A program made the position numbers and the translations under genes. The notes below the pieces were generated by a model. It did not search any database and was not told the DNA's origin. It saw nothing but the letters and a program-made list of their open reading frames with translations. From a virus, in IMG/VR virus record IMGVR_UViG_3300042446_000294, positions 1 to 43,112 of that record: a DNA stretch of 43,112 nt, one strand, 5' to 3'. Below are positions 7,425-22,487 of this stretch, piece by piece (position 1 is the first letter of the stretch; each line of letters opens with the position of its first letter).

Positions 7425-8012
7425 ATGGCAACAAAGAAAACTCCAGTAGAAGAAAAGTTTGAAAAACAAGACTTTGATTTGTTTGATGCATTAATTGCAT
7501 TAGACAAGAAAGACTATAGCTATATAGATAGACTAACAGAAGAACAACAACGAAAATTTGTTCCCTATATGATGACACACTGGATGAGTCAAATAAAAGC
7601 AAATAGTGGACTACAAGCATACTATGTGCGTAGTGTGGACTATCATGCTAACATACACTTATTCAATGAGAATGTACAAAAACATCCTAAGTTACAATGG
7701 TTGATGTTGTGTGCAAGCAGTCCAGGATTAGGTAAACAATTTCATCAATGGATACCCCATCTATCAACCAAAGTAAGTCAATTGAAAGAAACGCCTAAAG
7801 AAAAAGATGTTAAAGATTATTTTGGAAAAGTATATCCAAAAACAGATGATGGTAGTTTGCAAGAGATAAGCAAAGAGTTTGTGAATGAGCATAAAAAGAA
7901 AACCTATCTTGCAAAACAGTATCCTGATTTAAAATACACAGATATAGAATTGTTAAGCAGTTTAGTAACAGAAGAAGATATCCGCAGAGATGAAGAAGAT
8001 CGAGGAAACTAA
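7425..8012 (+). CDS. Possible gp62-like clamp-loader small subunit
   Basis: A 195-residue protein. The middle (YMMTHWMSQI, then LFNENVQKHPKLQWLMLCAS and a basic/aromatic GKQFHQWI) has the layout of T4 gp62, where a helix ending in F-N-Y-L-M is followed by P-R-G-K-R-Y-G-K-W. gp62 joins gp44 to load the sliding clamp. The resemblance is partial, no gp44 gene lies in the window, and the acidic C-terminus (EEDIRRDEEDRGN) is not diagnostic. Best treated as a tentative call. It overlaps the next gene by 23 bases. Confidence 0.5.
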   Translation: MATKKTPVEEKFEKQDFDLFDALIALDKKDYSYIDRLTEEQQRKFVPYMMTHWMSQIKANSGLQAYYVRSVDYHANIHLFNENVQKHPKLQWLMLCASSPGLGKQFHQWIPHLSTKVSQLKETPKEKDVKDYFGKVYPKTDDGSLQEISKEFVNEHKKKTYLAKQYPDLKYTDIELLSSLVTEEDIRRDEEDRGN

Positions 8013-8688
8013 ACCAGCGTTTAGTTGTGAGTTTTGCAATCGTAATTTTATTAGAGAAAAAACTCTAGTAACACATATTTGCGAAACTAAACATCGCTGG
8101 CTAGAAAAAGACAAACAAAGTAACCGAATGGGCTTTCAAAGTTTCCTACAATTTTACAAAAAACACTCAGCATCTAAAAAAGTAAAAACATATGAGGAGT
8201 TCATCAAAAGTGCATACTACATTGCTTTTGTTAAATTTGGCACATATTGTGTAGGCAGTAATGTTCTTAATGTTCCCCGATATGTAGATTGGTTATTAGC
8301 AAATAGTATCAAACTTGATAACTGGGCTACCGATACTAACTATACCAAATACTTGATTGACTATTTACGTAAGGAAGATGCGTTTGATGCGATACATCGT
8401 AGCGTAGAATCTACAATTGATTGGGCAGAAAAAGATAACATCTTACCCAAAGACTATTTGCGATATGGAAACATGAATAGAGTATGTCAATTGATATGCA
8501 ATGGTAAAATAAGTCCATGGCTGTTGTATTGTAGTGAGAGTGGTGTCCGTTTTCTAGAGACATTAAATCCAGATCATGTTAAAATAATCAATGATTACAT
8601 TAATCCAGAACAGTGGGCATTGAAGTTTCATCGTGAACCAGAACTTAAAAAACAAATTACAGACACCCTTAAACAAGCCGGTTACTAA
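7990..8688 (+). CDS. Phage protein with N-terminal C2H2-type zinc finger
   Basis: A 232-residue protein. Residues 13-35 form C-x2-C-x12-H-x5-H (C13, C16, H29, H35, with an extra C31), a C2H2-like zinc finger. A helical domain of about 190 residues follows, with FKSAYYIAFVKFGTYC-like and WLLANSI segments; I recall similar zinc-finger proteins in marine T4-like phages but no function. Nucleic-acid binding or regulation is plausible. It begins inside the previous gene and its end overlaps the only plausible start of the first tandem paralogue. Confidence 0.75.
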   Translation: MKKIEETKPAFSCEFCNRNFIREKTLVTHICETKHRWLEKDKQSNRMGFQSFLQFYKKHSASKKVKTYEEFIKSAYYIAFVKFGTYCVGSNVLNVPRYVDWLLANSIKLDNWATDTNYTKYLIDYLRKEDAFDAIHRSVESTIDWAEKDNILPKDYLRYGNMNRVCQLICNGKISPWLLYCSESGVRFLETLNPDHVKIINDYINPEQWALKFHREPELKKQITDTLKQAGY

Positions 8689-8872
8689 AGTAGTACTTGG
8701 TTGGACTCAGGGTCGTGCTGATATTCCTATATGGGATGAAATCTGCATATGGGCAATTGAACAGTTTGGGTTGCCGGGAACTAGATTTGAGTGGCATCCC
8801 GGAGAAGATAATATGGAATTCTACTTCTATGATGAACGTGACGCTATTCATTTTGAATTAAGATGGGGATGA
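8633..8872 (+). CDS. Tandem paralogue A, small F-x-F/DA/LRW-tail protein
   Basis: First of eight adjacent small genes whose proteins share a C-terminal pattern F-x-F-x4-[DE]A-x2-F-x-L-[RK]-W. Here the tail is MEFYFYDERDAIHFELRWG, preceded by a WAIEQFGLPG block. The start is uncertain: GTG at 8633, within the previous gene, is the only plausible in-frame start upstream of the conserved region, and it lacks a clear SD; the protein from there is 79 residues. The TGA stop overlaps the next gene's ATG. Function unknown. Confidence 0.65.
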   Translation: MNQNLKNKLQTPLNKPVTKVVLGWTQGRADIPIWDEICIWAIEQFGLPGTRFEWHPGEDNMEFYFYDERDAIHFELRWG

Positions 8873-9129
8873 CAATGCCACTAGAAGATGAAATAGCAGA
8901 CATGCTAGCTAAAGATATAGCTAAAGAAATAGATGAAGGCATCATGGTAGATTTATTGAAGGATATAGGCTGGACATCTGTAGAATTCTTTTACAAGGAT
9001 AACTTTCATGCAGTTGATGTAACTCATTGGTTGATGGGAAACTGCCCAGGTAAGTGGCGCAGATTAAGTTCTTTCTATATATTTGAAGATATAAAAGAAG
9101 CCGAATGGTTTATCTTGAGGTGGATATGA
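8869..9129 (+). CDS. Tandem paralogue B
   Basis: An 86-residue acidic member of the array. The ATG at 8869 forms an ATGA overlap with the stop of paralogue A; ATGs at 8863 and 8875 are alternatives. It has an N-terminal acidic helix, then HWLMGNCPGKW (the W...C/F-G block of the family) and the tail SSFYIFEDIKEAEWFILRWI. The conserved A and LRW residues are present. It is coupled to C by another ATGA overlap. Confidence 0.75.
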   Translation: MTMPLEDEIADMLAKDIAKEIDEGIMVDLLKDIGWTSVEFFYKDNFHAVDVTHWLMGNCPGKWRRLSSFYIFEDIKEAEWFILRWI

Positions 9130-9332
9130 GAATACTTAACAAAGACTTATGGCCGCATAGAATAGTGATACACAAAGATGAATCTAGAATTAGTCCAGAA
9201 ATTGAAAGATGGGTGTTTGAAAAGTGTGGTCAATATAAAGGTCATTGGAACATGGTTTATATTTATGATGAAACTCATTTCTATTTCAAAGACGGTAAAG
9301 ATGCCACATTATTTGCATTGAGGTGGACATGA
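9126..9332 (+). CDS. Tandem paralogue C
   Basis: A 68-residue member starting in an ATGA overlap (9126-9129). The family blocks are IERWVFEKCGQYKGHW and HFYFKDGKDATLFALRWT. This is the cleanest match to the array consensus: aromatic-x-F, K/D-D-A, F-A-L-R-W. The N-terminal half (HRIVIHKDESRI) looks like a beta hairpin. The alternating strand-helix-strand-helix pattern would suit a small alpha/beta (ferredoxin-like) fold; this is inferred from pattern only. Confidence 0.75.
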   Translation: MRILNKDLWPHRIVIHKDESRISPEIERWVFEKCGQYKGHWNMVYIYDETHFYFKDGKDATLFALRWT

Positions 9333-9559
9333 ACAGTAAACAAAGACGCAAAATCGAACGTGCCCACCCTCATCATATTACTATCTATGCTCAACCAAAT
9401 GAGATATACTTAGAGCATGATATAAAAGTAGTAAGGGCCTATCAATGGTGCAAGAAAAAATGCAAAGGTCATGTTGCAAGAATTTACTTTCACAATAAAG
9501 CTATATTTAAATTTAGTAATCAAAAGGATGCAATGTATTTTGCATTGAAATGGGTATGA
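9329..9559 (+). CDS. Tandem paralogue D
   Basis: A 76-residue basic member starting in an ATGA overlap (9329-9332). It begins MNSKQRRKIERAHPHH, giving a strongly positive N-terminus that A and B lack. The family blocks are AYQWCKKKCKGH and IFKFSNQKDAMYFALKWV. The charge change between neighbours with the same tail suggests divergence toward different partners, or nucleic-acid contact for this copy. Confidence 0.75.
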   Translation: MNSKQRRKIERAHPHHITIYAQPNEIYLEHDIKVVRAYQWCKKKCKGHVARIYFHNKAIFKFSNQKDAMYFALKWV

Positions 9560-9867
9560 TTAAGAAAACACGATTGACTAATAAAGAGATGTTGTTTGGA
9601 ACTAACGGTGGCTGGGCCGCAATGCGTAGTGTGAACCATGATGGTATGGGTAGTGTGTATGGTATTCCTTACTATCAAGTAACCCCGATTGTATCTAGCG
9701 GAGAATGGAATGATATGCTAGCATGGTGTGTTTCTACGTTTGGGGCCAGCGGCACAGAAAATAAGCCGGGAGTATGGACACCAAATGAAAGATGGTATGC
9801 TAACAATGCTAAGTTTTTCTTTAGAGACAAGGCAGATTGTGAATGGTTTATGTTGAGATGGCAATAA
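9556..9867 (+). CDS. Tandem paralogue E
   Basis: A 103-residue member, the largest of the array, starting in an ATGA overlap (9556-9559). After a longer N-terminal region come MLAWCVSTFGASGT, a tryptophan-rich stretch and the tail AKFFFRDKADCEWFMLRWQ, where the usual A of the DA pair is C. The last codons include the ATG of paralogue F (9858). Confidence 0.75.
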   Translation: MIKKTRLTNKEMLFGTNGGWAAMRSVNHDGMGSVYGIPYYQVTPIVSSGEWNDMLAWCVSTFGASGTENKPGVWTPNERWYANNAKFFFRDKADCEWFMLRWQ

Positions 9868-10082
9868 CTATTAATCTTAAAGGTAGTCTAACTGCGAGAC
9901 AGGAGAAATGGCTAGTAAAGAACGTAGGTCCTAGAATGTTCTACATACATAATAGTATTGGTGGACAGGGATGGGTTGCTAAACGTCAGAGTTATTCTAG
10001 GTATAGTGAACCAAGTACTTGGACTCTAACATTAGAAGATGAAAAATTGGCTACTTTTTTTGTAATAAAGTTTTCATCGTGA
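9858..10082 (+). CDS. Tandem paralogue F (diverged)
   Basis: A 74-residue member. The ATG at 9858 overlaps the last ten bases of E (ATGGCAATAA). The W-x3-N-V-G block (KWLVKNVGPR) is kept but the tail is diverged: WTLTLEDEKLATFFVIKFSS, with the final W replaced by F. It is basic and Ser/Tyr-rich in the middle. The stop overlaps the GTG start of G. Confidence 0.7.
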   Translation: MAITINLKGSLTARQEKWLVKNVGPRMFYIHNSIGGQGWVAKRQSYSRYSEPSTWTLTLEDEKLATFFVIKFSS

Positions 10083-10291
10083 TTAATCTTAGACTAGAAA
10101 TATCTGCGGCAAAGACAATGGAAAAAGCTAGTGAATTACGTGCAGCCGGTTATGTGCAGGGTGTAGATTTTGATTTTGAATATTACCCTAGCATACAGGA
10201 TAGATTTAACGGACCACCAAAATCTAGTTTTGTACTGTTTTACTTTTACAAAGAATCATTAGCAACTTATTATGGATTAAAATGGCAATAA
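10079..10291 (+). CDS. Tandem paralogue G
   Basis: A 70-residue member starting at a GTG in a GTGA overlap (10079-10082). It has a helix (AAKTMEKASELRAAGY) and a tail FVLFYFYKESLATYYGLKWQ that keeps the aromatic-x-F and L-K-W endings. Its last bases repeat the ATGGCAATAA junction seen between E and F. Confidence 0.7.
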   Translation: MINLRLEISAAKTMEKASELRAAGYVQGVDFDFEYYPSIQDRFNGPPKSSFVLFYFYKESLATYYGLKWQ

Positions 10292-10566
10292 TGAAACCTT
10301 CAGGTACATTTGTACCACTACCAATTAGAGATGATGAAATTGAATATGTGATACATGACCGTAATTATATGGGTAATAAAAACAGAACATCATATGTATA
10401 CGAGTGTAAAAAGAAAAAAGAAGATCCAGCTGTCATTGTAAAATGGTGCAGACGTAATTTTGGGGAAAGAGGTATGGGTTGGGACTTTCTTTTTACCTCA
10501 GGAAATGTTACAATCATACTGTGGGATGACAAATTTAAAACTATGTACGAATTATGGAAACAATAA
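10282..10566 (+). CDS. Tandem paralogue H (most diverged)
   Basis: A 94-residue, last member of the array. ATG at 10282 overlaps the end of G; ATG at 10291 (TAATG) is an alternative. It keeps VIVKWCRRNFGERGMGW, a strong match to the W-C-x3-F-G block in A and E, but its tail (TIILWDDKFKTMYELWKQ) has lost the DA pair and ends L-W-K. The basic segment CKKKKED is unusual in the array. Confidence 0.65.
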   Translation: MAIMKPSGTFVPLPIRDDEIEYVIHDRNYMGNKNRTSYVYECKKKKEDPAVIVKWCRRNFGERGMGWDFLFTSGNVTIILWDDKFKTMYELWKQ

Positions 10567-10572
10567 TTTTAT

Positions 10573-11136
10573 ATGATGAAAGAAATCAAAAAACACGAAT
10601 TGTTTGAAATTTTAAAAGGTCCCCATATGATGAAAGACTTATGTGAGGAATATAGTAAACGTAAAGGTAAGAATGTCTTTAAAGAATTCCATGACAATGG
10701 TGATTGTGAACCACATGAAATAGATTTGATTTACTCTAGGATAATAGAGCATTTTTGTGATGGTGATTTTTATGATATACAATGTTGCGTAAGGGACTCA
10801 TATGATAAAAATGAGGACATTTACCCTGCAGTAGCATTCTGGATTGACTTGAATATTGAAACCTCTCACCCTGCATACAATAACTATCCTAAATTAGAAA
10901 ATTTTAGAAAGTCATATTCTATAAAAACTTTCTCACAGTTTGAAGAAGTTATGGATAGCTGGCCAGATTTTGTAAAAGAAGGGTTGATTAAAATAGAAGA
11001 TAACCGAAAACTTTGGGAAAATCATCTATCCCCTGCCCCTGACACCAAAGTAGCGTATTATCATATAAAAAATTATTTAGGTGATGATATTAAAAATAGC
11101 TTTTCTCAAATCAAAGATTTTAAGAGAGTACCATAA
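10573..11136 (+). CDS. Unknown protein after the paralogue array
   Basis: A 187-residue protein I do not recognise; ATG 10573 or 10576. The N-terminal half is acidic and Cys-containing (DLCEEYSKRK, then DIQCCVRDSYD) and the rest has several short helices and a DLNIE strand. It lacks the LRW tail, so it is not an obvious array member. Its TAA overlaps the ATG of the exonuclease gene (TAATG), placing it in the same operon. Confidence 0.7.
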   Translation: MMKEIKKHELFEILKGPHMMKDLCEEYSKRKGKNVFKEFHDNGDCEPHEIDLIYSRIIEHFCDGDFYDIQCCVRDSYDKNEDIYPAVAFWIDLNIETSHPAYNNYPKLENFRKSYSIKTFSQFEEVMDSWPDFVKEGLIKIEDNRKLWENHLSPAPDTKVAYYHIKNYLGDDIKNSFSQIKDFKRVP

Positions 11137-11696
11137 TGGCAAATGATGTAATGATAGATATTGAAAGTTTGAACACAACACCTGATTGTGTTATACTTAC
11201 TATTGGTGCTGTGCGATTTGATCCTAAAGGCAATGGCGTTGCTGAACGATTAGAATTAAGACCTACAGTTGAGGATCAAACAGAGATTTACAATAGGAGT
11301 ATTAATGAAGATACATTACGATGGTGGAGTGAGCAGAGCCCTGAGGCACTTGAAGAAGCATTGGGAGACACAGGACGCACACCATTTAGTGAGTGCATGG
11401 AGACCCTTTATAAGTTTTGTTGGAACCGTCGTGCTGTTTGGAGTAATGGTGCGCCATTTGACTTGGTTGTAATGGAACATGCATGGCGACAAACAAGTGA
11501 CAAGCCTAATCCAATACCCTGGCCTTTCTGGACTATGAGAGATACTAGAACACTTTGGGAAATAGCAGGTGTTAAGTTACAATCAGGTGGACATGTTACA
11601 AGTCACAAAGCGGTAGAAGATGCTGAACGTCAGGCTATTGTTGTACAGCAAGCATATATGAAATTAATAAAAGCAGGATTAGTTGAACACAAATGA
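11136..11696 (+). CDS. DexA/Rv2179c-like 3'-5' exonuclease (DEDD fold)
   Basis: A 186-residue RNase-H-fold exonuclease. The DEDD residues are visible: MIDIES (D8, E10), SNGAPFDL (D109) and HKAVEDAERQ (H157, D162). This order and spacing, with a W-F-T-M-R-D-T-R-T-L segment between, fits the T4 DexA / Rv2179c-like group, which degrades ssDNA or RNA 3'-5'. It might trim host nucleic acid or process phage ends. It starts in TAATG and ends in ATGA overlaps within the operon. Confidence 0.88.
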   Translation: MANDVMIDIESLNTTPDCVILTIGAVRFDPKGNGVAERLELRPTVEDQTEIYNRSINEDTLRWWSEQSPEALEEALGDTGRTPFSECMETLYKFCWNRRAVWSNGAPFDLVVMEHAWRQTSDKPNPIPWPFWTMRDTRTLWEIAGVKLQSGGHVTSHKAVEDAERQAIVVQQAYMKLIKAGLVEHK

Positions 11697-12160
11697 AAAT
11701 TGGATTTAATTGTAGTAGTTTTGATTTGTTTCATGCCGGACATGTAACAATGTTAAAGATGGAAAAAGAATTGTGCGACTATTTAATAGTTGCATTACAA
11801 GTTGACCCCACGATTGATAGACCGGGCGTTAAAAACAAACCATGTCAAAGTGTATATGAACGGTACGTACAATTGCAGGCATGTAAATATGTGGATGAAA
11901 TTTTGGTATACTCAACCGAATACGATTTACTACAAATGTTAATGACCCAAACTATTCATATTCGTTTTCTAAGTGAAGAATATGTTAATAGAGATTTTAC
12001 CGGAAAGCAATATTGTATTGACAATGACATTGAATTGCACTATCATAAGAGACAACATAACTATAGCAGTAGTGAACTACGGGCTAGAGTTGCAAAGTTA
12101 GAAAATATGAAAGACGAAACAGTTAGTATCCCACAACATTCACCGGAGCTTATAAAATGA
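11693..12160 (+). CDS. Cytidylyltransferase-like nucleotidyltransferase
   Basis: A 155-residue Rossmann-like nucleotidyltransferase. The HxGH motif is HAGH (14-17) after MKIGFNCSSFDLF, and YSSSELR (124-130) stands where TagD-type enzymes have the R-T-x-G-I-S-T-T signature. Such enzymes join CTP (or ATP) to a phosphorylated substrate. It lies directly upstream of a sugar-nucleotide reductase-like gene with an ATGA overlap, so the pair may make an activated small molecule for modifying DNA, virion or cell surface. Substrate unknown. Confidence 0.82.
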   Translation: MKIGFNCSSFDLFHAGHVTMLKMEKELCDYLIVALQVDPTIDRPGVKNKPCQSVYERYVQLQACKYVDEILVYSTEYDLLQMLMTQTIHIRFLSEEYVNRDFTGKQYCIDNDIELHYHKRQHNYSSSELRARVAKLENMKDETVSIPQHSPELIK

Positions 12161-12945
12161 TTATACTTATTGGACATGGATATATCGGTAAAGCGATAAA
12201 GAAAGAATTAGAACAACAAAATTTAGAACATATTTGGATTAAGCATAGTGACCCTGTACCAGCCGGTAAACGAACAATTATTAATGCTACTGGGTTTACG
12301 GGTGTACCTAATGTAGATGCTTGTGAGATTTACAAACAAGAAACAATTGATGGCAATGTATTGTATCCTTTGTTCTTAGAGCAGTCAGAGAAATGTCCTA
12401 TTGTACATATCTCTAGTGGTTGCGTATATACAGGATATGAAAAACATTATAGTGAAACTGATGAACCTAATTTCAATTTTAACAATGGTAGTTTCTATAG
12501 TGGAAGTAAAGCATTAGAACAAAAACTATTAGAACCCTATATGAATAAGAGTTATCTGTTGCGTATTCGTATGCCTTTTAGTGATGACCATGACCCTAAG
12601 AATCTATTCAGTAAATTAGCACGTTATGAAAAATTGATTAACTATGAAAATAGTTTGAGTTATGTTCCTGATGTGGCTAAAGTTGCTGTAGAGTTTGCAA
12701 ACAATCATAAGACAATACCTAAAGGATTGTACAATGTGTGCAATCCAGGATCAACTACTACTAAGTATCTATCGGATAGACTAGGTTTCAATAAAGAGTG
12801 GTTTACTAAAGAAGAATTTAAACAAGCAGTGGTTGCTCCGCGTAGCAATTGTGTATTAAGTACAGATAAGTTACAAAGTGTGTTCCCGATTCAAACTCTT
12901 TTATCAGCACTAGCTAATTGCATCCCTAAATATAATGAAATTTAA
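12157..12945 (+). CDS. NAD(P)-dependent sugar reductase/epimerase (RmlD-like SDR)
   Basis: A 262-residue extended short-chain dehydrogenase. It has a glycine-rich GHGYIG (6-11) for the dinucleotide, INATGFTG followed by NVDACE, and the catalytic YSGSK (Y114, K118). The layout is close to dTDP-4-dehydrorhamnose reductase (RmlD). It is slightly shorter than bacterial RmlD (about 290-300). Coupled to the nucleotidyltransferase gene by an ATGA overlap, it probably acts in the same pathway. The 3' end overlaps the next ATG by 11 bases. Confidence 0.85.
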   Translation: MIILIGHGYIGKAIKKELEQQNLEHIWIKHSDPVPAGKRTIINATGFTGVPNVDACEIYKQETIDGNVLYPLFLEQSEKCPIVHISSGCVYTGYEKHYSETDEPNFNFNNGSFYSGSKALEQKLLEPYMNKSYLLRIRMPFSDDHDPKNLFSKLARYEKLINYENSLSYVPDVAKVAVEFANNHKTIPKGLYNVCNPGSTTTKYLSDRLGFNKEWFTKEEFKQAVVAPRSNCVLSTDKLQSVFPIQTLLSALANCIPKYNEI

Positions 12946-13525
12946 CTCAGACATTGACATTGACTTTGGCAACAGAGATAAGATATTAGAACATATCAAC
13001 CATATCCCTGCGGCAATGCGTAACGCCAAGCCAATACGTAAACATGCTACTGGTATCTATGTTACTGATATTCCATATGATGCTATTAATAATATGGCAA
13101 ACATAGATTATAATGATGCTGAAAACAGAGGTTATATTAAATTAGACTTGTTGAATGTTCATGTATATGACAAAGTACATGATGAGGCTCATCTAACTGA
13201 ACTAATGAGTGAGCCTAAATGGGAAAGATTAAATGATAGGGTATTTGTAGAGAAGTTAATTCACTTAAGCAATCACTATAACAGTATGCAGAAGATGCTT
13301 GAGCCAATTAACAGTATACCTAGACTTGCTATGTTTCTTGCTATCATTCGACCTGCTAAGAAACACTTAATTGGATTAGATTGGAAGACAGTTAATCAAA
13401 CTGTTTGGGATAAAGGCACTGATGGATATCACTTTAAAAAGAGTCATAGTTTAGCATATGCACATTTGGTAGTTGTACATATGAATTTACTTGAATCAGA
13501 GCATACGCTTAACCAAGGTAATTGA
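12935..13525 (+). CDS. Miniature DnaE (PolIII alpha) palm-like protein
   Basis: A 196-residue protein whose short blocks follow the order of bacterial PolIII alpha (DnaE): DIDIDFGNRDKILEHI (6-21, like PDFDVDF...RDQVIEHV), KHATGIYVTDIP (36-47, like KHAGGVVIAP), YIKLDLLNV (67-75, like LVKFDFLGL), LAIIRPA (135-141, like VALFRPG) and FKKSHSLAYAH (167-177, like FNKSHSAAYAL). D8, D10 and D71 align with the three catalytic aspartates of E. coli DnaE (D401, D403, D555). It lacks the PHP and fingers regions and is about six times shorter than DnaE. The alignment is from memory; activity is unknown. Confidence 0.75.
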   Translation: MKFNSDIDIDFGNRDKILEHINHIPAAMRNAKPIRKHATGIYVTDIPYDAINNMANIDYNDAENRGYIKLDLLNVHVYDKVHDEAHLTELMSEPKWERLNDRVFVEKLIHLSNHYNSMQKMLEPINSIPRLAMFLAIIRPAKKHLIGLDWKTVNQTVWDKGTDGYHFKKSHSLAYAHLVVVHMNLLESEHTLNQGN

Positions 13526-13876
13526 TTTCCGTTTACTTTTACGCTTGCTGAGTTCCAGCATACTACATATGGGACCATGTAGGATAGTAAGACTTTTATT
13601 GTTAAATGTACGTATATATGGTTTGAAAGCGACCCAGTCGTCCTTAAGAAACATATTAATAGGTACCAGTCTATTACTTTCCCACCACCAGATATCGCCG
13701 AGTTCTAAGAATTTTTCTCTTAAATCTTGATGAATGATAGATCCATAGTCATATATTGTAGTGACTATATCATCTCTATTCTGTACTATACCTACATAGT
13801 CTTGACCAGCGTAGGAACATACCGTAATAAAAGGATGATTTTCTGTTAGTTTTTTGAAAAATTCGTTATGTATCAT
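13496..13876 (-). CDS. Small minus-strand phage protein
   Basis: A 126-residue protein read leftward, starting at the ATG at 13874-13876 (MIHNEFFKKLTENHPF). An upstream in-frame TTG (13963) was rejected because the late promoter at 13893-13900 (minus) would lie inside. The C-terminal part contains IWWWESNRLVPINMFL, then RTFNNK and ILHGP, and ends basic (KRKSKRKSITLVKRML). I recall similar proteins in marine T4-like phages without known function. It converges with the mini-DnaE gene, overlapping 30 bases tail to tail. Confidence 0.72.
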   Translation of the reverse strand: MIHNEFFKKLTENHPFITVCSYAGQDYVGIVQNRDDIVTTIYDYGSIIHQDLREKFLELGDIWWWESNRLVPINMFLKDDWVAFKPYIRTFNNKSLTILHGPICSMLELSKRKSKRKSITLVKRML

Positions 13877-13892
13877 TATTATTGTTACGGAA

Positions 13893-13900
13893 TATTTATC
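13893..13900 (-). promoter_or_regulatory. T4-type late promoter (minus)
   Basis: The minus strand reads GATAAATA, 16 bases before the ATG of the reverse gene at 13876. It matches the family of [TGC]ATAAATA motifs in front of late genes in this window. It stands back to back with the plus-strand late promoter at 13925. Confidence 0.65.
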
Positions 13901-13924
13901 AATTATCTTTACCCAATTTATTTT

Positions 13925-13932
13925 TATAAATA
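13925..13932 (+). promoter_or_regulatory. T4-type late promoter, exact TATAAATA
   Basis: An exact T4 late consensus TATAAATA, followed by AAAGGAG (13937-13943) and the GTG start at 13951. Confidence 0.8.
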
Positions 13933-13950
13933 GTATAAAGGAGCCATATT

Positions 13951-14697
13951 GTGTATTCAACAAATGTTTATAAGTTTAAGCCAAGACAAGTTGTTGTTTT
14001 GTACAGTGGTAATTCTACCAGGAGGTACCAGATAGTGTACGCTAAGAATTTAACATTAAACAAGGGTGTGGATAACATTATTCAATTCCAGTTTCTAAAC
14101 CAAGAACAAAAATTCATAGATATTAGTAGTTTTGATATTACTTTTAGATTGATTAACTACACAGGTAAGGAAATCTTGTTTCGCAAAGCATTAACCGCTA
14201 CCTTACCATTGACTGGAATAGCTGAATTAGTTACTAATTCTAGTGATTTAGAGATGATTGATATCCAACAATGCTTTTATAGTTTGGAAATCAATGACGG
14301 GACATATGATCTACCAGTCTTTGTTAACAGTGAAGCCAGTGCTAGGGGCGTTATACAGATTGTAGATAGTATTTTACCTAGTTTTGTTCCTGCAATGGAT
14401 ATAGAAATTCCAAGTCATGCTATCCCTAATTCTAATACAGTAACATACACTAGTAGTGTAATGAGTACTAATAACAATAGTTTGTTAACTATCCAACCTT
14501 TCTTGGATGGTTATTCAGGAACTGTTCAGGTTCAGGGGTCTACATTGCCAGATTCTGGTTGGTATAATATCGGAAATACCCATGCATACTTGGATGCTAC
14601 CGAGACAGCAGGGTATGCAATTGACGGATTCCACCCATATATTCGTGTGCAGTTCGTCAGCACTCAAGGTAATGTAACCGGATTATTAGCCAGATAA
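13951..14697 (+). CDS. Probable virion structural protein
   Basis: A 248-residue, beta-rich protein with a GTG start, AAAGGAG SD and an exact late promoter, so probably expressed late. It starts MYSTNVYKFKPRQ. The first ~140 residues have alternating strands (FDITFRLINYTGKEILFRKA) as in baseplate or fibre N-terminal domains; the C-terminal ~80 residues (SGTVQVQGSTLPDSGWYNIG) look like an Ig- or lectin-like binding domain. A fibre, decoration or baseplate-associated protein is likely; no specific T4 counterpart is recognised. Confidence 0.7.
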   Translation: MYSTNVYKFKPRQVVVLYSGNSTRRYQIVYAKNLTLNKGVDNIIQFQFLNQEQKFIDISSFDITFRLINYTGKEILFRKALTATLPLTGIAELVTNSSDLEMIDIQQCFYSLEINDGTYDLPVFVNSEASARGVIQIVDSILPSFVPAMDIEIPSHAIPNSNTVTYTSSVMSTNNNSLLTIQPFLDGYSGTVQVQGSTLPDSGWYNIGNTHAYLDATETAGYAIDGFHPYIRVQFVSTQGNVTGLLAR

Positions 14698-14699
14698 TA

Positions 14700-14728
14700 T
14701 TGACTTACGCTACATACTATGTTATTAT
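14700..14728 (+). promoter_or_regulatory. Sigma70-like promoter, predicted leaderless
   Basis: TTGACT (14700-14705), 17 bp, TATTAT (14723-14728), then six bases (AGTAGT) and the primase ATG at 14735. There is no SD. The geometry equals the promoters before 4414, 6923 and 22907. Confidence 0.75.
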
Positions 14729-14734
14729 AGTAGT

Positions 14735-15706
14735 ATGTTTGATATCCTAACATTAGTTCCAGGTAAAAAACGACAAACATCTAGTGGTTGGACTAGTTTC
14801 AACGCTATTTGTTGTGTCCATGCTGGCCATCGTCCGGATACTAAATTTAGGGGAGGAGTCAAATTTGAAGGTCCTCAACATTGGATGTACAATTGCTTCA
14901 ATTGTGGGTTTAGTTGTAGTTTTGAATTAGGCAAACCCATATTCCCAAAAACAAGACAGTTTTTATTATGGTGCGGAGTAGATACGCAACAAATACAAAG
15001 ATGGAATCTTGAAAGTTTACAAAATAAAGACTTCTTGGACTTTAGTGGTAAAAAACAATTTCATAAAATTGAATTCAACACAAAAACTTTACCCCCTGGT
15101 GAACTACTAGATATTGAAAATTCTGAACATAAAACTTATGTTGATTATCTACTAAAGAGAAAAATAAATTTAGAAGATTATTCTTTCGTAGTCACCCCTG
15201 ATGATTCGGGAAGAAACAAAAATAGAATCGTTATACCCTACACTTATAAAAATAAAATAGTAGGGAATACTAGCAGGTATCTTGATAATAAGATTCCTAA
15301 ATTTATTAATGATCAACAACCAGGGTATGTATTCAACATTGACAAGCAACATAAAGATTGGAGTGTTTGCATAGTTACAGAGGGTATTTTTGATGCACTA
15401 TCAATTGATGGTGTTGCATTAATGCATAATGACATAAGCACTGACCAAGTTATAATGTTGTCACAATTAAACAAACAAATAGTTGTGGTCCCGGATAGGG
15501 ATACAACTGGATTAAAGATATGTGATAAAGCATTAGAATTGGGATACCAAGTCAGTTTACCTGATTGGGATACTGATATTAAAGATGTAAATGACGCAGT
15601 AATAAGATATGGCAAACTGCCTACGTTACTAAGTATAATACAAAATAAAACAAATAGTAAAATAAAAATAGAAATGCAGAGGCGTAAAATTGCAAAAGGA
15701 ATATAA
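14735..15706 (+). CDS. gp61: DNA primase, gp61-like
   Basis: A 323-residue DnaG-type primase, the partner of the gp41 helicase encoded next. An N-terminal zinc site is formed by C26/C27, H29 or H32, and CFNC (C54, C57). The Toprim domain shows VTEGIFDA (E216) and VVPDRDTTG (D254, D256). Length is close to T4 gp61 (342). It makes short RNA primers for lagging-strand synthesis. The ATG lies six bases after a -10 box, so translation is probably leaderless. The last 17 bases overlap the helicase gene. Confidence 0.92.
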   Translation: MFDILTLVPGKKRQTSSGWTSFNAICCVHAGHRPDTKFRGGVKFEGPQHWMYNCFNCGFSCSFELGKPIFPKTRQFLLWCGVDTQQIQRWNLESLQNKDFLDFSGKKQFHKIEFNTKTLPPGELLDIENSEHKTYVDYLLKRKINLEDYSFVVTPDDSGRNKNRIVIPYTYKNKIVGNTSRYLDNKIPKFINDQQPGYVFNIDKQHKDWSVCIVTEGIFDALSIDGVALMHNDISTDQVIMLSQLNKQIVVVPDRDTTGLKICDKALELGYQVSLPDWDTDIKDVNDAVIRYGKLPTLLSIIQNKTNSKIKIEMQRRKIAKGI

Positions 15707-17114
15707 CACAGATATTCAACGACTCTTTTTACAAATGATGCTAACAAATGCAGAATTGTATACTAGGGTTATGAATATAATGAATCCGGATAACTTTGAC
15801 AGGTCACTAAGAAAAGTGGCAGAGTTTATGAAGGAATATAGTGAGAAGTATAGTCTGTTACCGGATATTACTCAAATCAAAGCAACTACAGGTATCCAAC
15901 TTGAATTGATTGAAGATTTTGGTGATAAACACACTGAATGGTTTTTAGAAGAATTTGAATCATTTACTAAACGACAAGAATTAGAACGAGCGATTCTTAA
16001 ATCAGCCGATCTGTTAGAGAAGGGTGACTTTGGCCCTGTTGAGAAACTAATCAAAGAGGCAGTGCAAATCAGCTTACAACGTGATATGGGTACAGATTAC
16101 TTTGCTGACCCTAAGGCACGTATTAACAAATATTTCAACGCAGGCGGTCAACAAAGTACGGGCTGGCCACAGATGGATAAACTATTGTATGGTGGTTTTA
16201 GTCGCGGTGAATTAAACATTTTTGCAGGTGGTTCAGGTTCAGGTAAATCGTTGGTTATGATGAATATTGCATTGAATTGGTTGCAAATGGGACTTAGTGG
16301 TGTTTATATCAGTTTAGAATTGAGTGAAGAATTAACATCATTGAGAACTGATGCAATGTTGACTATGATGAGTACTAGAGATATCCGTAAAGATATTGAT
16401 GGCACTGAATTAAGAGTTAAAATGGCAGGTAAGAAATCTGGACAATATCGTGTTAAAGGATTGCCAGCACAGAGCAATGTCAATGATATTCGTTCATACT
16501 TAAAAGAAGTACAGATTCAAACTGGAATCAAAGTTGACTTTGTGATGATTGATTATTTGGATCTAGTTATGCCTGTGAGTGTCAAAGTCAATCCCAACGA
16601 TCAGTTTATTAAAGACAAGTATGTTAGCGAAGAATTGCGTAACTTAGCAAAAGAGTTGGGAATTTTAATGGTAACTGCAAGTCAGTTGAATCGTAGTGCA
16701 GTTGAAGAAATTGAATTTGATCATAGTCACATTGCAGGCGGTATCAGTAAGATTAACACAGCAGATAACGTATTTGGTATCTTTACAAGTCGTAGTATGC
16801 GAGAGCGGGGAAAATATCAAATTCAATGTATGAAAAGTCGTAGTTCGACGGGTGTGGGGCAGAAAATTGATTTGGAATACAACATTGAGACTATGCGTAT
16901 TACGGACGAGGATCCAGATGGATATGCTGAACAGCAATCAAAATACAAGCCTAGCCCAAGTCCTAATGATATTATGAGTAGATTAAAGCCCCAATCAACA
17001 GTTACGGAAGCAATTGATAAAGATACAGGGGAAATAGAACCAGTTACAAATCGGGTGGTAGCTGACGTTCAGGGGGCAAAACTCAAGGCCCTACTGAATA
17101 CTCTGAAAAAATGA
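15690..17114 (+). CDS. gp41: Replicative DNA helicase, gp41/DnaB-like
   Basis: A 474-residue hexameric helicase of the T4 gp41/DnaB type. A helical N-terminal domain (to about 135) precedes the RecA-like core: Walker A GGSGSGKS (180-187), then FVMIDYLDLV (Walker B), a GILMVTASQLNR segment and IQCMKSRSS near the arginine finger. It works with the gp61 primase upstream as the primosome. The start is TTG at 15690, with an AGAGG SD inside the primase gene. The tail is Pro/Ser-rich and basic. The stop overlaps an ATG at 17111 and a late promoter motif. Confidence 0.95.
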   Translation: MQKEYNTDIQRLFLQMMLTNAELYTRVMNIMNPDNFDRSLRKVAEFMKEYSEKYSLLPDITQIKATTGIQLELIEDFGDKHTEWFLEEFESFTKRQELERAILKSADLLEKGDFGPVEKLIKEAVQISLQRDMGTDYFADPKARINKYFNAGGQQSTGWPQMDKLLYGGFSRGELNIFAGGSGSGKSLVMMNIALNWLQMGLSGVYISLELSEELTSLRTDAMLTMMSTRDIRKDIDGTELRVKMAGKKSGQYRVKGLPAQSNVNDIRSYLKEVQIQTGIKVDFVMIDYLDLVMPVSVKVNPNDQFIKDKYVSEELRNLAKELGILMVTASQLNRSAVEEIEFDHSHIAGGISKINTADNVFGIFTSRSMRERGKYQIQCMKSRSSTGVGQKIDLEYNIETMRITDEDPDGYAEQQSKYKPSPSPNDIMSRLKPQSTVTEAIDKDTGEIEPVTNRVVADVQGAKLKALLNTLKK

Positions 17115-17120
17115 TAAATA
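17113..17120 (+). promoter_or_regulatory. T4-type late promoter
   Basis: GATAAATA in TGATAAATAC, overlapping the helicase stop. The likely start of the next gene (17141) is 20 bases downstream, behind a weak AGGA. Confidence 0.6.
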
Positions 17121-17140
17121 CAAATAGGATATCTATACCC

Positions 17141-17386
17141 ATGCAAAAACAAACTCGCAGCCTACTAGAGGAATTAGAAGCTATTGGTAATAATCGTGAT
17201 ACTAAACATATCATTGAAAGCCGTGCCCATAATATAATTACTAGTGCTATAAATTTATTGGAAATGATTAATAAAAATTATGATCCAGAAAAAGCGCAGA
17301 TCCTAGAGCGAAAATTACTTAGTGCTATAAAGGCCCGAGATCAGGGTAGATTCAGTAAAAGCCTAAGGAAAAAGGATGAAACTTAA
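17141..17386 (+). CDS. Small helical protein of unknown function
   Basis: An 81-residue, mostly helical protein (starts MQKQTRSLLEEL). ATG at 17141 is preferred because a late promoter lies at 17113-17120; an in-frame ATG at 17111, overlapping the helicase stop, would add ten residues. The middle (RAHNIITSAINLLEMI) is an amphipathic helix and the C-terminus is basic (GRFSKSLRKKDET). I know of no function. It overlaps the next gene by 11 bases. Confidence 0.65.
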   Translation: MQKQTRSLLEELEAIGNNRDTKHIIESRAHNIITSAINLLEMINKNYDPEKAQILERKLLSAIKARDQGRFSKSLRKKDET

Positions 17387-18434
17387 AGAAGTTATCGTTG
17401 AAGGCATCGGTGATGCTATAAGATCCGGGATATATAGAGCTACCGGATATGGCGGAAACCCTGCCAATCAATCTGCTACAAAAGTTAAATTTATTAACGA
17501 TTTAAAGCAGAAATTAAAACTTAATAAAGATAGTTCTAGAAAATCAGGAGTTCCGTTTGATTCCAACAAGTACGTAGATTCATATCTAGCAAAGTACAAT
17601 GCAAAAGTTGATGATGAACAAAGAGACCAGTTAAAGAAACTAGCTAATAATCCTGACAAATTTGCAAACTACATGTACATGTTAATGTCTCAGCAAACAG
17701 CTAATCAGCAAGGATATGTACAAGGTTCAAATAGTCCTCAACAATACGGTGCAGGTCCTCAACAATACGGTGCAGGTCCTCAACAATACGGTGCAGGTCC
17801 TCAAGCAGGAGGCAGGGCCCAACAACAAACTGCGACAGCACCACAGTTAGAACCAACAACTACTAATGTAATTAAACAAATACAAAAATTAACAGGACCT
17901 GAAAGATTAGATGACCTAGCTGAGATTACAAAATCTGCTATGAAGGTTCTGTATAAACAGAATCCTACAAAATACTCTGACTTGTACAAAGAAATAATGA
18001 CTGGCAAGAGCAATGCTAACAAAATGAATACTTCATCTTTGGCTACAGACTTAGCAACTAAGCGTCAGCAGAATCAAAAAGCAATGCAACAGTATGTAGA
18101 TTCTACAAGCCCGTACGGAACAAAAGACCCAGTTGGTTCTAGTGTAATGGGGAACATTGCTAACACAGTACAACCAAAAGATACTAGTGTCGGGGCTAAT
18201 GCATTTTCTGCAATGAACAAATCGTTAGGTGGACCTGAAACTATGCCACCAGAACAAAACCCATCTGATAAACGTTCACAGGACTTTGAGAAGGCTGCAA
18301 TGACTGCACGTGGCGGGATGACTGATGCTCCTGCCCCAACTGATTTTGCAGCCAAACGAGAATTGGCAGCTAAGAATGCACAAGCAAGCATGAAACCTAA
18401 AGTTACCGAAACTCGTAGATTTTACAAAAGATAA
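17376..18434 (+). CDS. Gln/Ala-rich protein, candidate internal virion protein
   Basis: A 352-residue, basic, low-complexity protein with a good SD (AAGGAAAAAGG). The N-terminus MKLKEVIVEG resembles T4 capsid-targeting sequences (MKTYQEFIAE), which end in an x-x-E site for the gp21 protease. Three exact PQQYGAG repeats (about 121-141) are encoded by tandem 21-bp units, followed by a Gln/Thr-rich linker and a helical region. A DNA-associated internal head protein would fit; this is inference. No enzyme motif was seen. It overlaps the next gene as TAATG. Confidence 0.68.
   Translation: MKLKEVIVEGIGDAIRSGIYRATGYGGNPANQSATKVKFINDLKQKLKLNKDSSRKSGVPFDSNKYVDSYLAKYNAKVDDEQRDQLKKLANNPDKFANYMYMLMSQQTANQQGYVQGSNSPQQYGAGPQQYGAGPQQYGAGPQAGGRAQQQTATAPQLEPTTTNVIKQIQKLTGPERLDDLAEITKSAMKVLYKQNPTKYSDLYKEIMTGKSNANKMNTSSLATDLATKRQQNQKAMQQYVDSTSPYGTKDPVGSSVMGNIANTVQPKDTSVGANAFSAMNKSLGGPETMPPEQNPSDKRSQDFEKAAMTARGGMTDAPAPTDFAAKRELAAKNAQASMKPKVTETRRFYKR
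17736..17798 (+). repeat. Three tandem 21-bp repeats
   Basis: Three exact 21-bp units at 17736-17756, 17757-17777 and 17778-17798, each encoding PQQYGAG, with a partial fourth unit (PQ) after them. Their identity suggests recent slippage or recombination; copy number may vary between relatives. Confidence 0.92.
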
Positions 18435-19630
18435 TGAGTACTGAATCTATTAGAGGTCTAGTAACTAGACTGGAATCATTGAATGAGCAAGAACTAACAA
18501 AGGCTCACGTTGAACATCCTGAGGATTTAGTATTTCACACAGGTGGTCAGGGCGCACAGCAAGGATTAACAGCAATGGTTGATACTGTTCAGAATCCAGG
18601 AGCTATTACAATTAAATGGGACGGCTATCCTGCATTGATATTTGGTACTGGTCTTGATGGTGAATTTATTGTTTGTGATAAACATATGTTCAATAAAAAA
18701 GATGGTTCAGGCCATGTAACTAGCCCACAAGCATTTGCCGCTTATGATAAAGCCAGAGGAATTGAGCGCGGCGACTTAGTTAATGTCATTACTAGAATAT
18801 GGCCTGGGTTACAGAAATCATATTCGGGAAAAGGATTCTACTGGGGTGACTTATTATTCAGTCAACCACTACAAGAGAAAAACGGATTATACACTTTCAG
18901 AGCAAATCCAAATGGCATCACATATACTATAGAAGCCAATAGCGAAATTGGACAATTAATTAAGGGTAAAGTAGGTGGCATAGCTGTACATCAATATATT
19001 CCACCAGAAGCAGACAATGTTCAGTATGCACAATTATTAAATGGCAGTATAGGTAAGTTAAAAAACAATGGCAATGTTGCAATTATTCCTGCTAAGATGC
19101 CAATGGTTCCCCAGTTAAAATTAAATAAAACAGTAATTGCTAAAACGCAACGTGAGATAGATAAAAACAAAGCTGCCGCAGATGCATTTATTTTGCGTGT
19201 ACCACCGGGGGTTAAATCAGTATTTCCACTAATGTGTACAGTATTCATCAATAAAAAGATTGTAGCAGGTAACCTAGATAATCTAGTAGAAGAATTTATA
19301 GAGTTTGCCAAGTCTAGAAAAATGACAGAACCAGTGTACAAAAAACTATTTGGATATGATGTGCAGAACCCACAGACTGGTCAACCGGAACATGTGCCAG
19401 GGCATTTTGATACTAATATTGCTGGTATAACTGCGGTATTCTCAATATGGATAGCGTTATATAATCTTAAGATGCAGGTTGTCCCCCAATTAGACAAAGC
19501 CGCAGAACAAAGTCCGGTCAAGGGTTATCTATCTGATGGTACACAAACCCAAGAAGGTTTTGTTAGTCACGGAATCAAACTTATCAACAGAATGGGCTTT
19601 AGCCGTCAAAATTTGGCTGCTAGAGGTTGA
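18434..19630 (+). CDS. KxDG-motif protein, ligase-like (DUF6267-like)
   Basis: A 398-residue protein that I recall as the phage family DUF6267 (HPEDLVF, GAQQGL). The segment ITIKWDGYPALIFG contains K61-W-D-G64, the shape of motif I (K-x-D-G) of DNA/RNA ligases and mRNA-capping nucleotidyltransferases, where the Lys takes AMP or GMP. Possible later motifs are KGFYWGDLLFS and KGKVGGIAVH. Whether it is active is not shown. It starts in TAATG after the Gln-rich gene. Confidence 0.72.
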   Translation: MSTESIRGLVTRLESLNEQELTKAHVEHPEDLVFHTGGQGAQQGLTAMVDTVQNPGAITIKWDGYPALIFGTGLDGEFIVCDKHMFNKKDGSGHVTSPQAFAAYDKARGIERGDLVNVITRIWPGLQKSYSGKGFYWGDLLFSQPLQEKNGLYTFRANPNGITYTIEANSEIGQLIKGKVGGIAVHQYIPPEADNVQYAQLLNGSIGKLKNNGNVAIIPAKMPMVPQLKLNKTVIAKTQREIDKNKAAADAFILRVPPGVKSVFPLMCTVFINKKIVAGNLDNLVEEFIEFAKSRKMTEPVYKKLFGYDVQNPQTGQPEHVPGHFDTNIAGITAVFSIWIALYNLKMQVVPQLDKAAEQSPVKGYLSDGTQTQEGFVSHGIKLINRMGFSRQNLAARG

Positions 19631-19657
19631 CCAAAACCAACATTTTTTTGTTCCAGG

Positions 19658-19665
19658 CATAAATA
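19658..19665 (+). promoter_or_regulatory. T4-type late promoter
   Basis: CATAAATA about 45 bases before the ATG at 19711. A 5' hairpin follows (TGAATC 19672-19677, loop TATAT, GATTCA 19683-19688), then AAAGGA as SD. Confidence 0.72.
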
Positions 19666-19710
19666 ATAGTATGAATCTATATGATTCAAAATATTTAAAG
19701 GAATAATATC

Positions 19711-20064
19711 ATGGCATATACAACACGTACTCACGGTGACTTTCAACCAGTAATGAACTATGACGCTGCCGGCTATACAGTTGGTTCAGTGAACGCAGTA
19801 ACTTCAGCAGTAACAGTTCAACCACAAGGTCCTAAGTTAGACTTCTTCACAATCGCTTTAGCTGATTTGGCTACAGACGGTACAGTATTGTTAAATTGCA
19901 TCAACGCAATTCAACAATTGGCTACTATCTATATCTACGAAGTAACTAACACTGGTACAGATACAATCGCTATTGCAGTTTACCCAACAGGTGCATGGAC
20001 AACAGCAACTCTAGACACTGCTACTGGTGGTACAACTACTGCGACAGCATCATTCACAAACTAA
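19711..20064 (+). CDS. Probable abundant small virion protein
   Basis: A 117-residue, Thr/Ala-rich protein (starts MAYTTRTHGDFQPV) without charged clusters, beta-rich, as expected for a capsid decoration or other surface protein. It is a single-gene unit: late promoter, structured leader, strong SD, then a strong terminator. Codons are unusually regular, with many C-ending Asn, Ile, Tyr and Phe codons, consistent with high expression. The identity is inferred; no T4 homologue (such as Soc or Hoc) is recognised. Confidence 0.72.
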   Translation: MAYTTRTHGDFQPVMNYDAAGYTVGSVNAVTSAVTVQPQGPKLDFFTIALADLATDGTVLLNCINAIQQLATIYIYEVTNTGTDTIAIAVYPTGAWTTATLDTATGGTTTATASFTN

Positions 20065-21835: not shown

Positions 21836-22165
21836 ATGAAGTTATTTGAATTTGCCGATGATGATCCATTACGTGTGAAATTGGTTGCGGTTACCAACCA
21901 ATTAAAAGAACGCATCGGCAAAGGTGGACAAACAATTACCACCGACGAGTTATTAAATTTTCTAAAACAGAATGATGTTATATTAGATAAAGATGATTTA
22001 TTTGATATAGTAAAAAAAGATCCATTAAGAAATATAATTCATAATGTAAACAAAGATGAAGTTGTATTTAAGGGTCAAGAAGGCGCAGAAAAACTAGGTG
22101 CAACGCCCGGTCCAGATGAACATGAAAAAACACGCCAGCAAATGGCGCAAAAGCAAATGAAGTGA
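21836..22165 (+). CDS. Small conserved-looking protein with MKLFEF start
   Basis: A 109-residue protein. The start at 21836, just after the previous TAA, is preferred over upstream in-frame codons inside the previous gene. It starts MKLFEFADDDPLRVKLVAVT, then TTDELLNFLKQNDVILDKDDLFDIVK, a helix-rich region, and ends with a basic/Gln-rich tail. I recall a DDPL...TDELL pattern in T4-like phages, function unknown. The start resembles a capsid-targeting sequence. Its stop overlaps the IscA GTG. Confidence 0.72.
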   Translation: MKLFEFADDDPLRVKLVAVTNQLKERIGKGGQTITTDELLNFLKQNDVILDKDDLFDIVKKDPLRNIIHNVNKDEVVFKGQEGAEKLGATPGPDEHEKTRQQMAQKQMK

Positions 22166-22485: not shown

Positions 22486-22487
22486 AC

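What the first reader, a model, noticed from the sequence alone, without database searches (positions are those of the whole stretch)
8633..10566. Array of eight tandem small paralogues sharing an F-x-F / DA / LRW tail
Eight consecutive genes encode 68-103-residue proteins that share a W-x3-[FC]-G block and a C-terminal F-x-F-x4-[DE]A-x2-F-x-L-[RK]-W pattern, though they are highly diverged elsewhere and differ in charge. All seven junctions overlap by 4-10 bases (ATGA, GTGA or ATGGCAATAA), so they are probably translated as a coupled series. The pattern fits repeated duplication and divergence, as seen for anti-host or anti-defence proteins, or for subunits of one hetero-oligomer. The sequence shows the homology; the function is inference.
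Basis: partly seen in the sequence, partly recalled or inferred. Interest (0 to 1): 0.88.

Follow-up and report, generated by a model that had tools for sequence, protein, structure and literature searches.

The report
Reshuffling cassette array of small phage proteins
A giant virus of bacteria carries a row of eight small, related genes that belong to a large undescribed protein family whose members are swapped in and out as whole units between related viruses, each gene's conserved end also tending to carry the start signal for the next gene.

Summary
The eight overlapping genes are real, at the stated coordinates, with all seven junctions as described. The strict tail motif fits A, C and D; B, E and G deviate at one or two places; F and H do not have it. 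Profiles tie A-E together (94.8-97.6%), G and F less strongly; H is tied by a weak profile match and predicted fold. They belong to a large family without a supported match in Pfam, PHROGs, NCBIfam, PADLOC or PDB sequences. It recurs in tandem arrays in environmental phage contigs, with 36 matches in one 154-kb record and 31 in Sinorhizobium phage Phosso. The predicted fold is a small beta-alpha-beta-beta-alpha domain with conserved hydrophobic and variable other positions. New: (1) the C-terminal L-R/K-W codons often hold the next gene's Shine-Dalgarno or start codon; (2) genes are exchanged whole: near-identical pairs diverge at the junction in 62% of cases and almost never inside genes; 41 distinct arrays show 29 gene orders. 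Purifying selection holds. I infer exchangeable accessory binding proteins aimed at host or defence targets; no target is shown.

The parts
8633..8872 (+). gene A (79 aa, GTG start, begins inside the zinc-finger gene)
   Evidence: ORF; first gene in 33 of 41 distinct arrays; dN/dS 0.07 from 3 synonymous and 1 other change
8863..9129 (+). gene B (88 aa; other ATGs 8869, 8875)
   Evidence: family HMM 2e-12
9126..9332 (+). gene C (68 aa), most compact member; AF2 model
   Evidence: pLDDT 86.9, beta-alpha-beta-beta-alpha
9329..9559 (+). gene D (76 aa), absent from close relative L005
9556..9867 (+). gene E (103 aa)
9858..10082 (+). gene F (74 aa), divergent member without LRW
   Evidence: fam2 4.6e-3; hhalign 85% to G, 72% to D
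10079..10291 (+). gene G (70 aa), conserved orthologue group (65 loci)
   Evidence: hhalign 77-87% to A-D; alignment
10282..10566 (+). gene H (94 aa), conserved orthologue with EDPxxIVKWCRRNFGxRGxGWDF; least secure family member
   Evidence: 58 loci, alignment, model with same topology at moderate confidence
9117..9129 (+). B/C junction: GAGGTGG (within the L-R-W codons of B, Shine-Dalgarno-like for C) then ATGA
   Evidence: sequence; codon tests
9320..9332 (+). C/D junction: GAGGTGG then ATGA
   Evidence: sequence
9858..9867 (+). E/F junction ATGGCAATAA: start codon of F lies inside the R-W codons of E
   Evidence: sequence; L007 has AGG + ATGA in the same gene where another member follows
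10282..10291 (+). G/H junction ATGGCAATAA, same arrangement with K-W codons
   Evidence: sequence
7990..8688 (+). upstream flank: zinc-finger protein conserved in jumbo T4-like phages (phrog_11058)
12935..13525 (+). downstream DnaE-like polymerase piece that marks the site in other jumbo phages

Best explanation
This is a modular, translationally chained array of exchangeable accessory proteins at a fixed hot spot (between a zinc-finger gene and a polymerase gene) of a jumbo T4-like phage. Each gene encodes one small beta-alpha-beta-beta-alpha domain in which hydrophobic, mostly aromatic positions are kept and the rest varies. The final codons L-R/K-W-x-stop do two jobs: they supply residues of the presumed protein core, and as DNA (TTGAGGTGGnnATGA, or AGATGG/AAATGG) they carry the ribosome-binding site or start codon of the next gene. 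New members can thus be dropped in or lost at the junction with frames and expression kept. Shown: common descent (firm A-E, moderate F and G, weak H), turnover of whole genes, junction architecture, codon bias, purifying selection. Inferred: coupling in the cell, burial of the kept residues, and that the proteins are small binding domains that block or redirect varying host or defence proteins, with the conserved end (G and H above all) serving a steadier function.
For: Homology; fold. Arrays: 519 member ORFs in 124 loci (some loci are cuts of one contig), runs of up to 8; 36 matches in a 154-kb record, 31 in Phosso, 24 and 21 in records of 364 and 344 kb. 41 distinct zinc-finger-to-H segments have 29 gene orders and 3-11 members (H is last by construction). 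Swap test: of distinct pairs at least 85% identical over 60 nt, 538 of 863 have unrelated DNA in the 60 nt after the stop; summed over seven centres from -165 to -75 inside genes it is 0 of 2,729 (pairs recur between centres), and 2 of 737 at -60. Family ends 533 of 836 swapped, non-member ends followed by non-members 130 of 796, non-members followed by a member 59 of 170. AGG is 125 of 204 Arg codons at the LRW position against 150 of 1,706 elsewhere in the same genes, 75 of 105 after thinning to under 40% identity, against 32 of 352 just upstream. ATG at -3: 225 of 470 members, 277 of 1,504 other genes; ATG at -9, inside R/K-W: 90 of 470 and 10 of 1,504. Kept positions are mostly hydrophobic. 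Net charge of A-H runs from -8 to +11. PA5oct members carry no ESI-MS/MS note although some neighbours do.
Against: No target, phenotype or expression is known. Codon bias depends only in part on coupling: 109 of 148 Arg codons are AGG where ATG follows at -3 or 0, but still 14 of 27 where no start was found (p = 0.037), and non-member ATGA genes with Arg there also favour AGG (11 of 25), so the Shine-Dalgarno role is the usual one placed on a conserved motif. ATG at -9 follows of itself from AGA or AAA before TGG. F54 and F63 are fixed in part by the search pattern. In Phosso the matches are spread over the genome. G and H are strongly conserved, which does not fit a purely variable arsenal. 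D-H differ more between window and L007 than A-C do, so larger blocks may move too. F and H are poorly linked to several members.
Confidence: 0.5

Rival explanations
1. The paralogues are subunits of one hetero-oligomeric complex, made in fixed ratio by coupled translation.
For: Overlapping chained genes, same predicted element order in C and H, three-stranded sheet that could pair with another subunit (inference).
Against: Number and identity of members vary, 3 to 11 with 29 orders in 41 arrays; one member just before the polymerase piece and one before the zinc-finger gene in Phosso instead of an array; PA5oct has three clear matches, two of them in adjacent genes.
Confidence: 0.15
2. They are small RNA- or DNA-binding regulators with an RRM-like or other ferredoxin-like fold that tune replication or translation.
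For: Weak structural similarity to RRM, KH and ACT domains (best VIA Z 6.0, an RRM at 5.4); site inside the replication gene block beside a zinc-finger gene; basic conserved motif in H.
Against: Middling Z values may mean only a common arrangement (note); no fourth strand in C; net charge -8 to +11; the strongly kept polar positions of the 93-row alignment are an Asp and an Arg/Lys in helix 2.
Confidence: 0.2
3. The genes are selfish or near-neutral filler kept by recombination rather than by use.
For: Fast gain and loss; EndoVII-like endonuclease genes beside some arrays.
Against: dN/dS 0.07-0.42 for the eight genes in one pair; orthologue groups G and H found in 65 and 58 loci.
Confidence: 0.08
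4. They are virion or assembly proteins.
For: PA5oct members lie near structural genes; PBECO4 has a gene named virion structural protein at the equivalent site, though no family model matched it.
Against: No ESI-MS/MS note on PA5oct gp209, gp210, gp237 or the doubtful gp204 while some neighbours have one; position among replication genes in the window.
Confidence: 0.05

Closest known systems
tifA/dmd anti-toxin region of phage T4 and tandem amplification of tifA (PMC9391042; passages read)
   Same: Small accessory genes of a T4-like phage, copy number changed by recombination under pressure from host defence
   Different: There one locus is amplified as repeated segments; here the copies are highly diverged and different whole genes are exchanged. 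No sequence relation was tested.
SegB-driven amplification of anti-defence loci in T6 (PMC13096335; abstract and outline read)
   Same: Local amplification helped by an endonuclease; EndoVII-like genes sit beside some arrays here
   Different: No evidence that an endonuclease drives turnover here; 7 of 12 distinct EndoVII-like ORFs lie within 200 bp of a member.
About 35-copy zinc-ribbon expansion of Bacillus phage G (PMC7824862; passages read)
   Same: Lineage-specific expansion of a small domain in a jumbo phage
   Different: Different domain; no chained array with shared junction codons in the passages read.
Uncharacterized proteins of uncultured Caudovirales phages in BFVD (for example A0A6J5TB89, A0A6J5NXQ2) and of Agrobacterium phage Atu_ph07
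   Same: Similar predicted fold (best five Foldseek 2.5e-4 to 8.6e-4, TM by query 0.60-0.81; Atu_ph07 only at 0.10-0.11)
   Different: Deposited predictions without a name or function.
Ferredoxin-like domains (RRM, ACT, KH)
   Same: Beta-alpha-beta-beta-alpha order
   Different: No sequence match, no Foldseek hit at E below 0.001, no strand after helix 2 in C.

Membership tests
Any Pfam, PHROGs, NCBIfam or PADLOC family | Match supported by more than isolated members | tested here: not met
   Of 93 members scanned, no family was matched by more than 1 member at the limits used (0.01 PHROGs, 0.05 the others; best single match 0.00094 in PADLOC); A-H singly gave nothing below 0.01 in PHROGs or Pfam
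RRM domain | beta-alpha-beta-beta-alpha core order | tested here: met
   Models of C and, at lower confidence, H
RRM domain | fourth beta strand after helix 2 | tested here: not met
   Helix 2 ends at residue 67 of 68 in C; 118 of 136 pattern hits end one or two residues after LRW
RRM domain | RNP1/RNP2 motifs and RNA binding (recalled definition) | tested here: inconclusive
   No solved-structure sequence match; RRM chains appear only among middling Z values
Single family uniting A-H | Mutual profile detection | tested here: inconclusive
   Met for A-E and G; F linked through G and D but 6-8% to A and E; H at most 37% and 0.1-9% to five members; HMM 4.6e-3 for F and 1.5e-3 for H
Single family uniting A-H | Common predicted fold | tested here: inconclusive
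   C (pLDDT 86.9) and H (63.6 overall, block means 67-81 from residue 41 on) share order and spacing of the five main elements; the other six were not modelled
Anti-defence island of T4-like phages | Members inhibit host defence proteins | not testable with these tools
   Needs expression and infection assays
Anti-defence island of T4-like phages | Variable accessory genes at a conserved site | tested here: met
Virion structural proteins | Detected in particles | tested here: inconclusive
   No ESI-MS/MS note on PA5oct members; absence of a note is weak

The most novel reading that the evidence does not exclude
The C-terminal F-x-L-R/K-W is a dual-code cassette end, kept both as protein core and as the ribosome-binding or start signal of the next gene. 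Phages use it to build, shuffle and lose chains of interchangeable small binding proteins from a shared pool of hundreds, a viral counterpart in logic (not in mechanism) to cassette arrays, aimed at ever-changing host defences.
Probability: 0.35. Interest if true: 0.87.

Novelty: new variant of a known kind. Interest (0 to 1): 0.74.

Why it matters
Jumbo phage genomes are full of small genes without names. Here hundreds of them fall into one family with what looks like one fold and one rule of assembly, so a large piece of phage dark matter becomes a single testable question. If the members are defence blockers, the arrays are ready-made libraries of small inhibitors; if not, they are a clean natural case of gene order evolving by whole-gene exchange with expression signals built into the junction.

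Tried and rejected
Nucleotide search of window 8001-20000 in named phages: no match. tblastn of A, C and two other members in named phages at E up to 1: nothing; E reached Phosso at 8e-3 and six further records only at E 5-9; H gave only weak hits in its N-terminal part at E 2; a Phosso member found only Phosso and one Microviridae record at E 1. Fold search in PDB gave no E below 0.001, only common ferredoxin-like arrangements; absence there shows nothing. I first took the codon bias as proof of a Shine-Dalgarno function peculiar to this family; the controls (11 of 25 AGG in non-member ATGA genes; 14 of 27 without a found start) show it is the ordinary coupling signal placed on a conserved motif, so I claim only that. 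The first junction-identity profile confined breakpoints to the junction by its own selection rule, so I replaced it by the sliding test and a non-member control. Companion genes gave no functional lead: 255 neighbours, 84 of them singletons; two of the three largest clusters look by eye like divergent members and the third is the zinc-finger gene; only six companions were put to Pfam, of which two matched (EndoVII, glutamine-amidotransferase-like). EndoVII as driver: too few cases to claim. The equivalent-site genes of PBECO4 and Atu_ph07 matched no family model. Bacterial genomes: 31 stretches with the DNA pattern, 24 translate to it (one with a stop inside), 6 look like C-terminal members by eye; 5 of these 6 genomes were searched and 5 of 5 have a match. 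Surroundings were read for L149 and L166 only and look prophage-like by eye. Literature: eight searches, of which some were aimed at such a family and some at its phages or precedents; none of the listings showed a description of it, and passages of PMC11242549, PMC6102473 and PMC7824862 did not mention it. Only open-licence papers are held, so this does not show that none is in print. Rows dropped: loci L001, L002, L004, L006 and L008-L017 (repeat cuts or near-duplicates) from the counts; identical proteins or identical DNA contexts counted once.
Full report
Observation. The window is one IMG/VR virus record of 43,112 bases. Eight + strand ORFs follow each other at 8633-10566 and all seven junctions overlap by 4 or 10 bases. 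The tail pattern as written holds for A, C and D; B, E and G deviate at one or two places; F and H do not have it. The second block is W-x4-[FC]-G, not W-x3, and holds for A, C, E and H. A-E find one another with single sequences at E 5e-7 to 0.3, except the pair A-B. Orthologue profiles give 94.8-97.6% probability within A-E, 77-87% for G against A-D, 85% F-G, 72% F-D and at best 37% for H (to E), against at most 1.5% between any member and six unrelated window proteins used as control. Low values must be told too: F is at 6-8% to A and E, H at 0.1-9% to A, B, C, D and G. A family model trained without the C-terminal strings of F, G, H and near orthologues scores H 1.5e-3, F 4.6e-3 and G 0.11 in 7,023 ORFs. 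H is the least secure.

The phage. UvsX-like recombinase, UvsW-like helicase, primase, DnaB-like helicase and tail sheath place the window among T4-like myoviruses. The gene before the array, a zinc-finger protein, has relatives in 61 named phage records; 29 of the 30 listed are over 200 kb, among them PA5oct, MIJ3, Paride, Munch, PBECO4, SCTP-2, Atu_ph07 and Phosso. In PBECO4, Atu_ph07 and Phosso the order zinc finger, small gene(s), polymerase piece, reverse-strand gene, virion protein is kept; in the window the array stands in the small-gene slot, with further genes before the polymerase piece. In Phosso one member sits just before the polymerase piece (family model 1.7e-4) and another two genes before the zinc finger (3.2e-6).

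Family size and distribution. All 136 translated hits lie within 16 codons of a stop, 127 within three, which chance matches would not do. Iterated models found 503 distinct ORFs at E below 1e-3 in the fetched set; 519 member ORFs lie in 124 loci, with runs of up to eight neighbours (a few loci are cuts of one contig). Whole-record searches gave matches in 19 of 19 records, with 36 in a 154-kb record, 31 in Phosso, 24 and 21 in records of 364 and 344 kb, 4 in Atu_ph07. Those records were chosen because they held a match, so 19 of 19 is no frequency. At E up to 0.1, PA5oct has three matches below 1e-6 and one at 0.04, PBECO4 one at 0.003, SCTP-2 none. In bacterial genomes the pattern is rare. 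No curated family matched more than 1 of 93 members; the PDB sequence search gave only two matches at E 0.95 and 2.2.

Fold. AlphaFold2 on C with 93 family rows gives pLDDT 86.9, pTM 0.75, order E11-16 H24-34 E41-46 E49-54 H57-67. H with 38 rows of its own orthologues gives E35-40 H49-60 E67-72 E75-80 H83-93, the same order, after an extra strand and a short helix turn; pLDDT is 63.6 overall, with block means of 67-81 from residue 41 on. The other six were not modelled. The nearest predicted structures are unnamed phage proteins; solved structures match only as common ferredoxin-like arrangements. In the 93-row alignment the kept positions are W29, W/Y/F41, F52, F54, A60, F63, L65, W67, with D59 and R/K66 the strongly kept polar ones and G35 kept where present; most others vary. 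Burial is inferred from hydrophobicity and element order; I did not see coordinates. F54 and F63 are partly fixed by how the rows were found. G and H differ: they carry long conserved motifs, GYVQGVDFDF and EDPxxIVKWCRRNFGxRGxGWDF.

Junctions. In 270 distinct members ending F-x-L-[RK]-W, 234 have an ATG, GTG or TTG with an open frame of at least 40 codons from -15 to +2 of the stop. With a greedy gene set, 225 of 470 members have ATG at -3 against 277 of 1,504 other genes, and 90 against 10 have ATG at -9, inside the R/K-W codons. The Arg of LRW is AGG in 125 of 204 cases against 150 of 1,706 Arg codons elsewhere in the same genes (Fisher p 6e-64, related sequences not removed); after thinning to under 40% identity it is 75 of 105. 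AGGTGGnnATGA puts GAGG five bases before the next ATG. Other kept positions are biased less strongly: F63 TTT 0.88 against 0.77, A60 GCT 0.55 against 0.33, L65 TTG 0.52 against 0.19, the last completing TTGAGG. A natural switch is seen in gene E: followed by another E-type gene in L007 it ends TTGAGGTGGCAATGATG, followed by F in L005 and the window it ends AGATGGCAxTAA, with the start of F inside the R-W codons. Against an absolute reading: AGG is also common (14 of 27) where no start was found, and in 11 of 25 control ATGA genes with Arg at that place.

Turnover. L005 lacks D; its C is followed at the ATGA by the 5' stretch of E, though there the open frame of E begins only 16 bases after the end of C, one base in a run of A being extra compared with relatives. 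L003 and L007 have further members and non-members. Among 41 distinct zinc-finger-to-H segments there are 29 gene orders and 3-11 recognised members; A is first in 33, G precedes H in 23 (the zinc finger and H are the ends by construction). In a sliding test over member contexts, pairs at least 85% identical for 60 nt have unrelated DNA in the next 60 nt in 538 of 863 cases at the stop codon, in none of the pairs at each centre from -165 to -75, in 2 of 737 at -60, and again in up to 4.5% near the neighbouring gene borders. Ends of non-members followed by non-members show 130 of 796, non-members followed by a member 59 of 170. So genes are exchanged whole. dN/dS between window and L007 is 0.07-0.42 for A-H and 0.03-0.14 for five flanking genes: constrained, but less.

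Mechanism. The most economical account is an array of interchangeable small binding proteins. Shown: family, turnover, coupling signals, constraint. Inferred: binding to varying host or defence targets, because the conservation pattern, spread of charge and fast whole-gene turnover at an accessory site are what I would expect of such proteins, and because small T4 accessory genes with changing copy number are known defence blockers (tifA, PMC9391042, passages; amplification of anti-defence loci by SegB, PMC13096335, abstract). The conserved end of the array may do a fixed job. Alternatives are a hetero-oligomer, nucleic-acid-binding regulators, filler, or virion parts; the evidence for each is in its field.

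Novelty. Expansions of small domains in jumbo phages are known (a zinc ribbon in about 35 copies in Bacillus phage G, PMC7824862, passages). I found no description of this family, its fold or its junction rule in five searches aimed at it or three on its phages and precedents, nor in the libraries tested; so I class it as a new variant of a known kind.

Noticed in passing
L020:8976-9461 and L130:2959-3420: Two family members carry an N-terminal extension with a lone P-loop (AGRQTGKS / AGRQMGKS, resembling the start of a terminase or helicase by eye) in front of the domain.
   Followed up: no
L007:7513-7920 and similar ORFs in L184, L186-L188, L289, L299, L310: EndoVII-like endonuclease (PF02945, E 4e-12 for the L007 protein, which lies 328 bp from a member); 7 of 12 distinct ORFs lie within 200 bp of a member.
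   Followed up: partly
window 22162-22862: The phage carries an IscA-like and a NifU/IscU-like iron-sulphur assembly gene next to each other (Pfam E 3e-17 and 4e-54).
   Followed up: no
window 11693-12945 against L007:8467-8928: Between exonuclease and polymerase the window has a cytidylyltransferase-like and an epimerase-like gene; L007 has a different gene there that looks like a sugar epimerase by eye, so this slot also varies.
   Followed up: no
L149 and L166 (Caballeronia, Burkholderia contigs): Family members in prophage-like surroundings, with further small genes ending FKLRYM, FKLRFL, MLKLKYC that may be relatives.
   Followed up: partly
L007:5739-5951, L003:3105-3332 and a cluster of 12 loci: A gene of about 70-113 aa with a tail like FHMEPETQYATVFDLLT lies inside arrays and may be a very divergent member; it was not scored as one.
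   Followed up: no
NC_071039.1 184808-185068 (PA5oct gp203): A gene annotated polyubiquitin-like lies near the PA5oct members.
   Followed up: no
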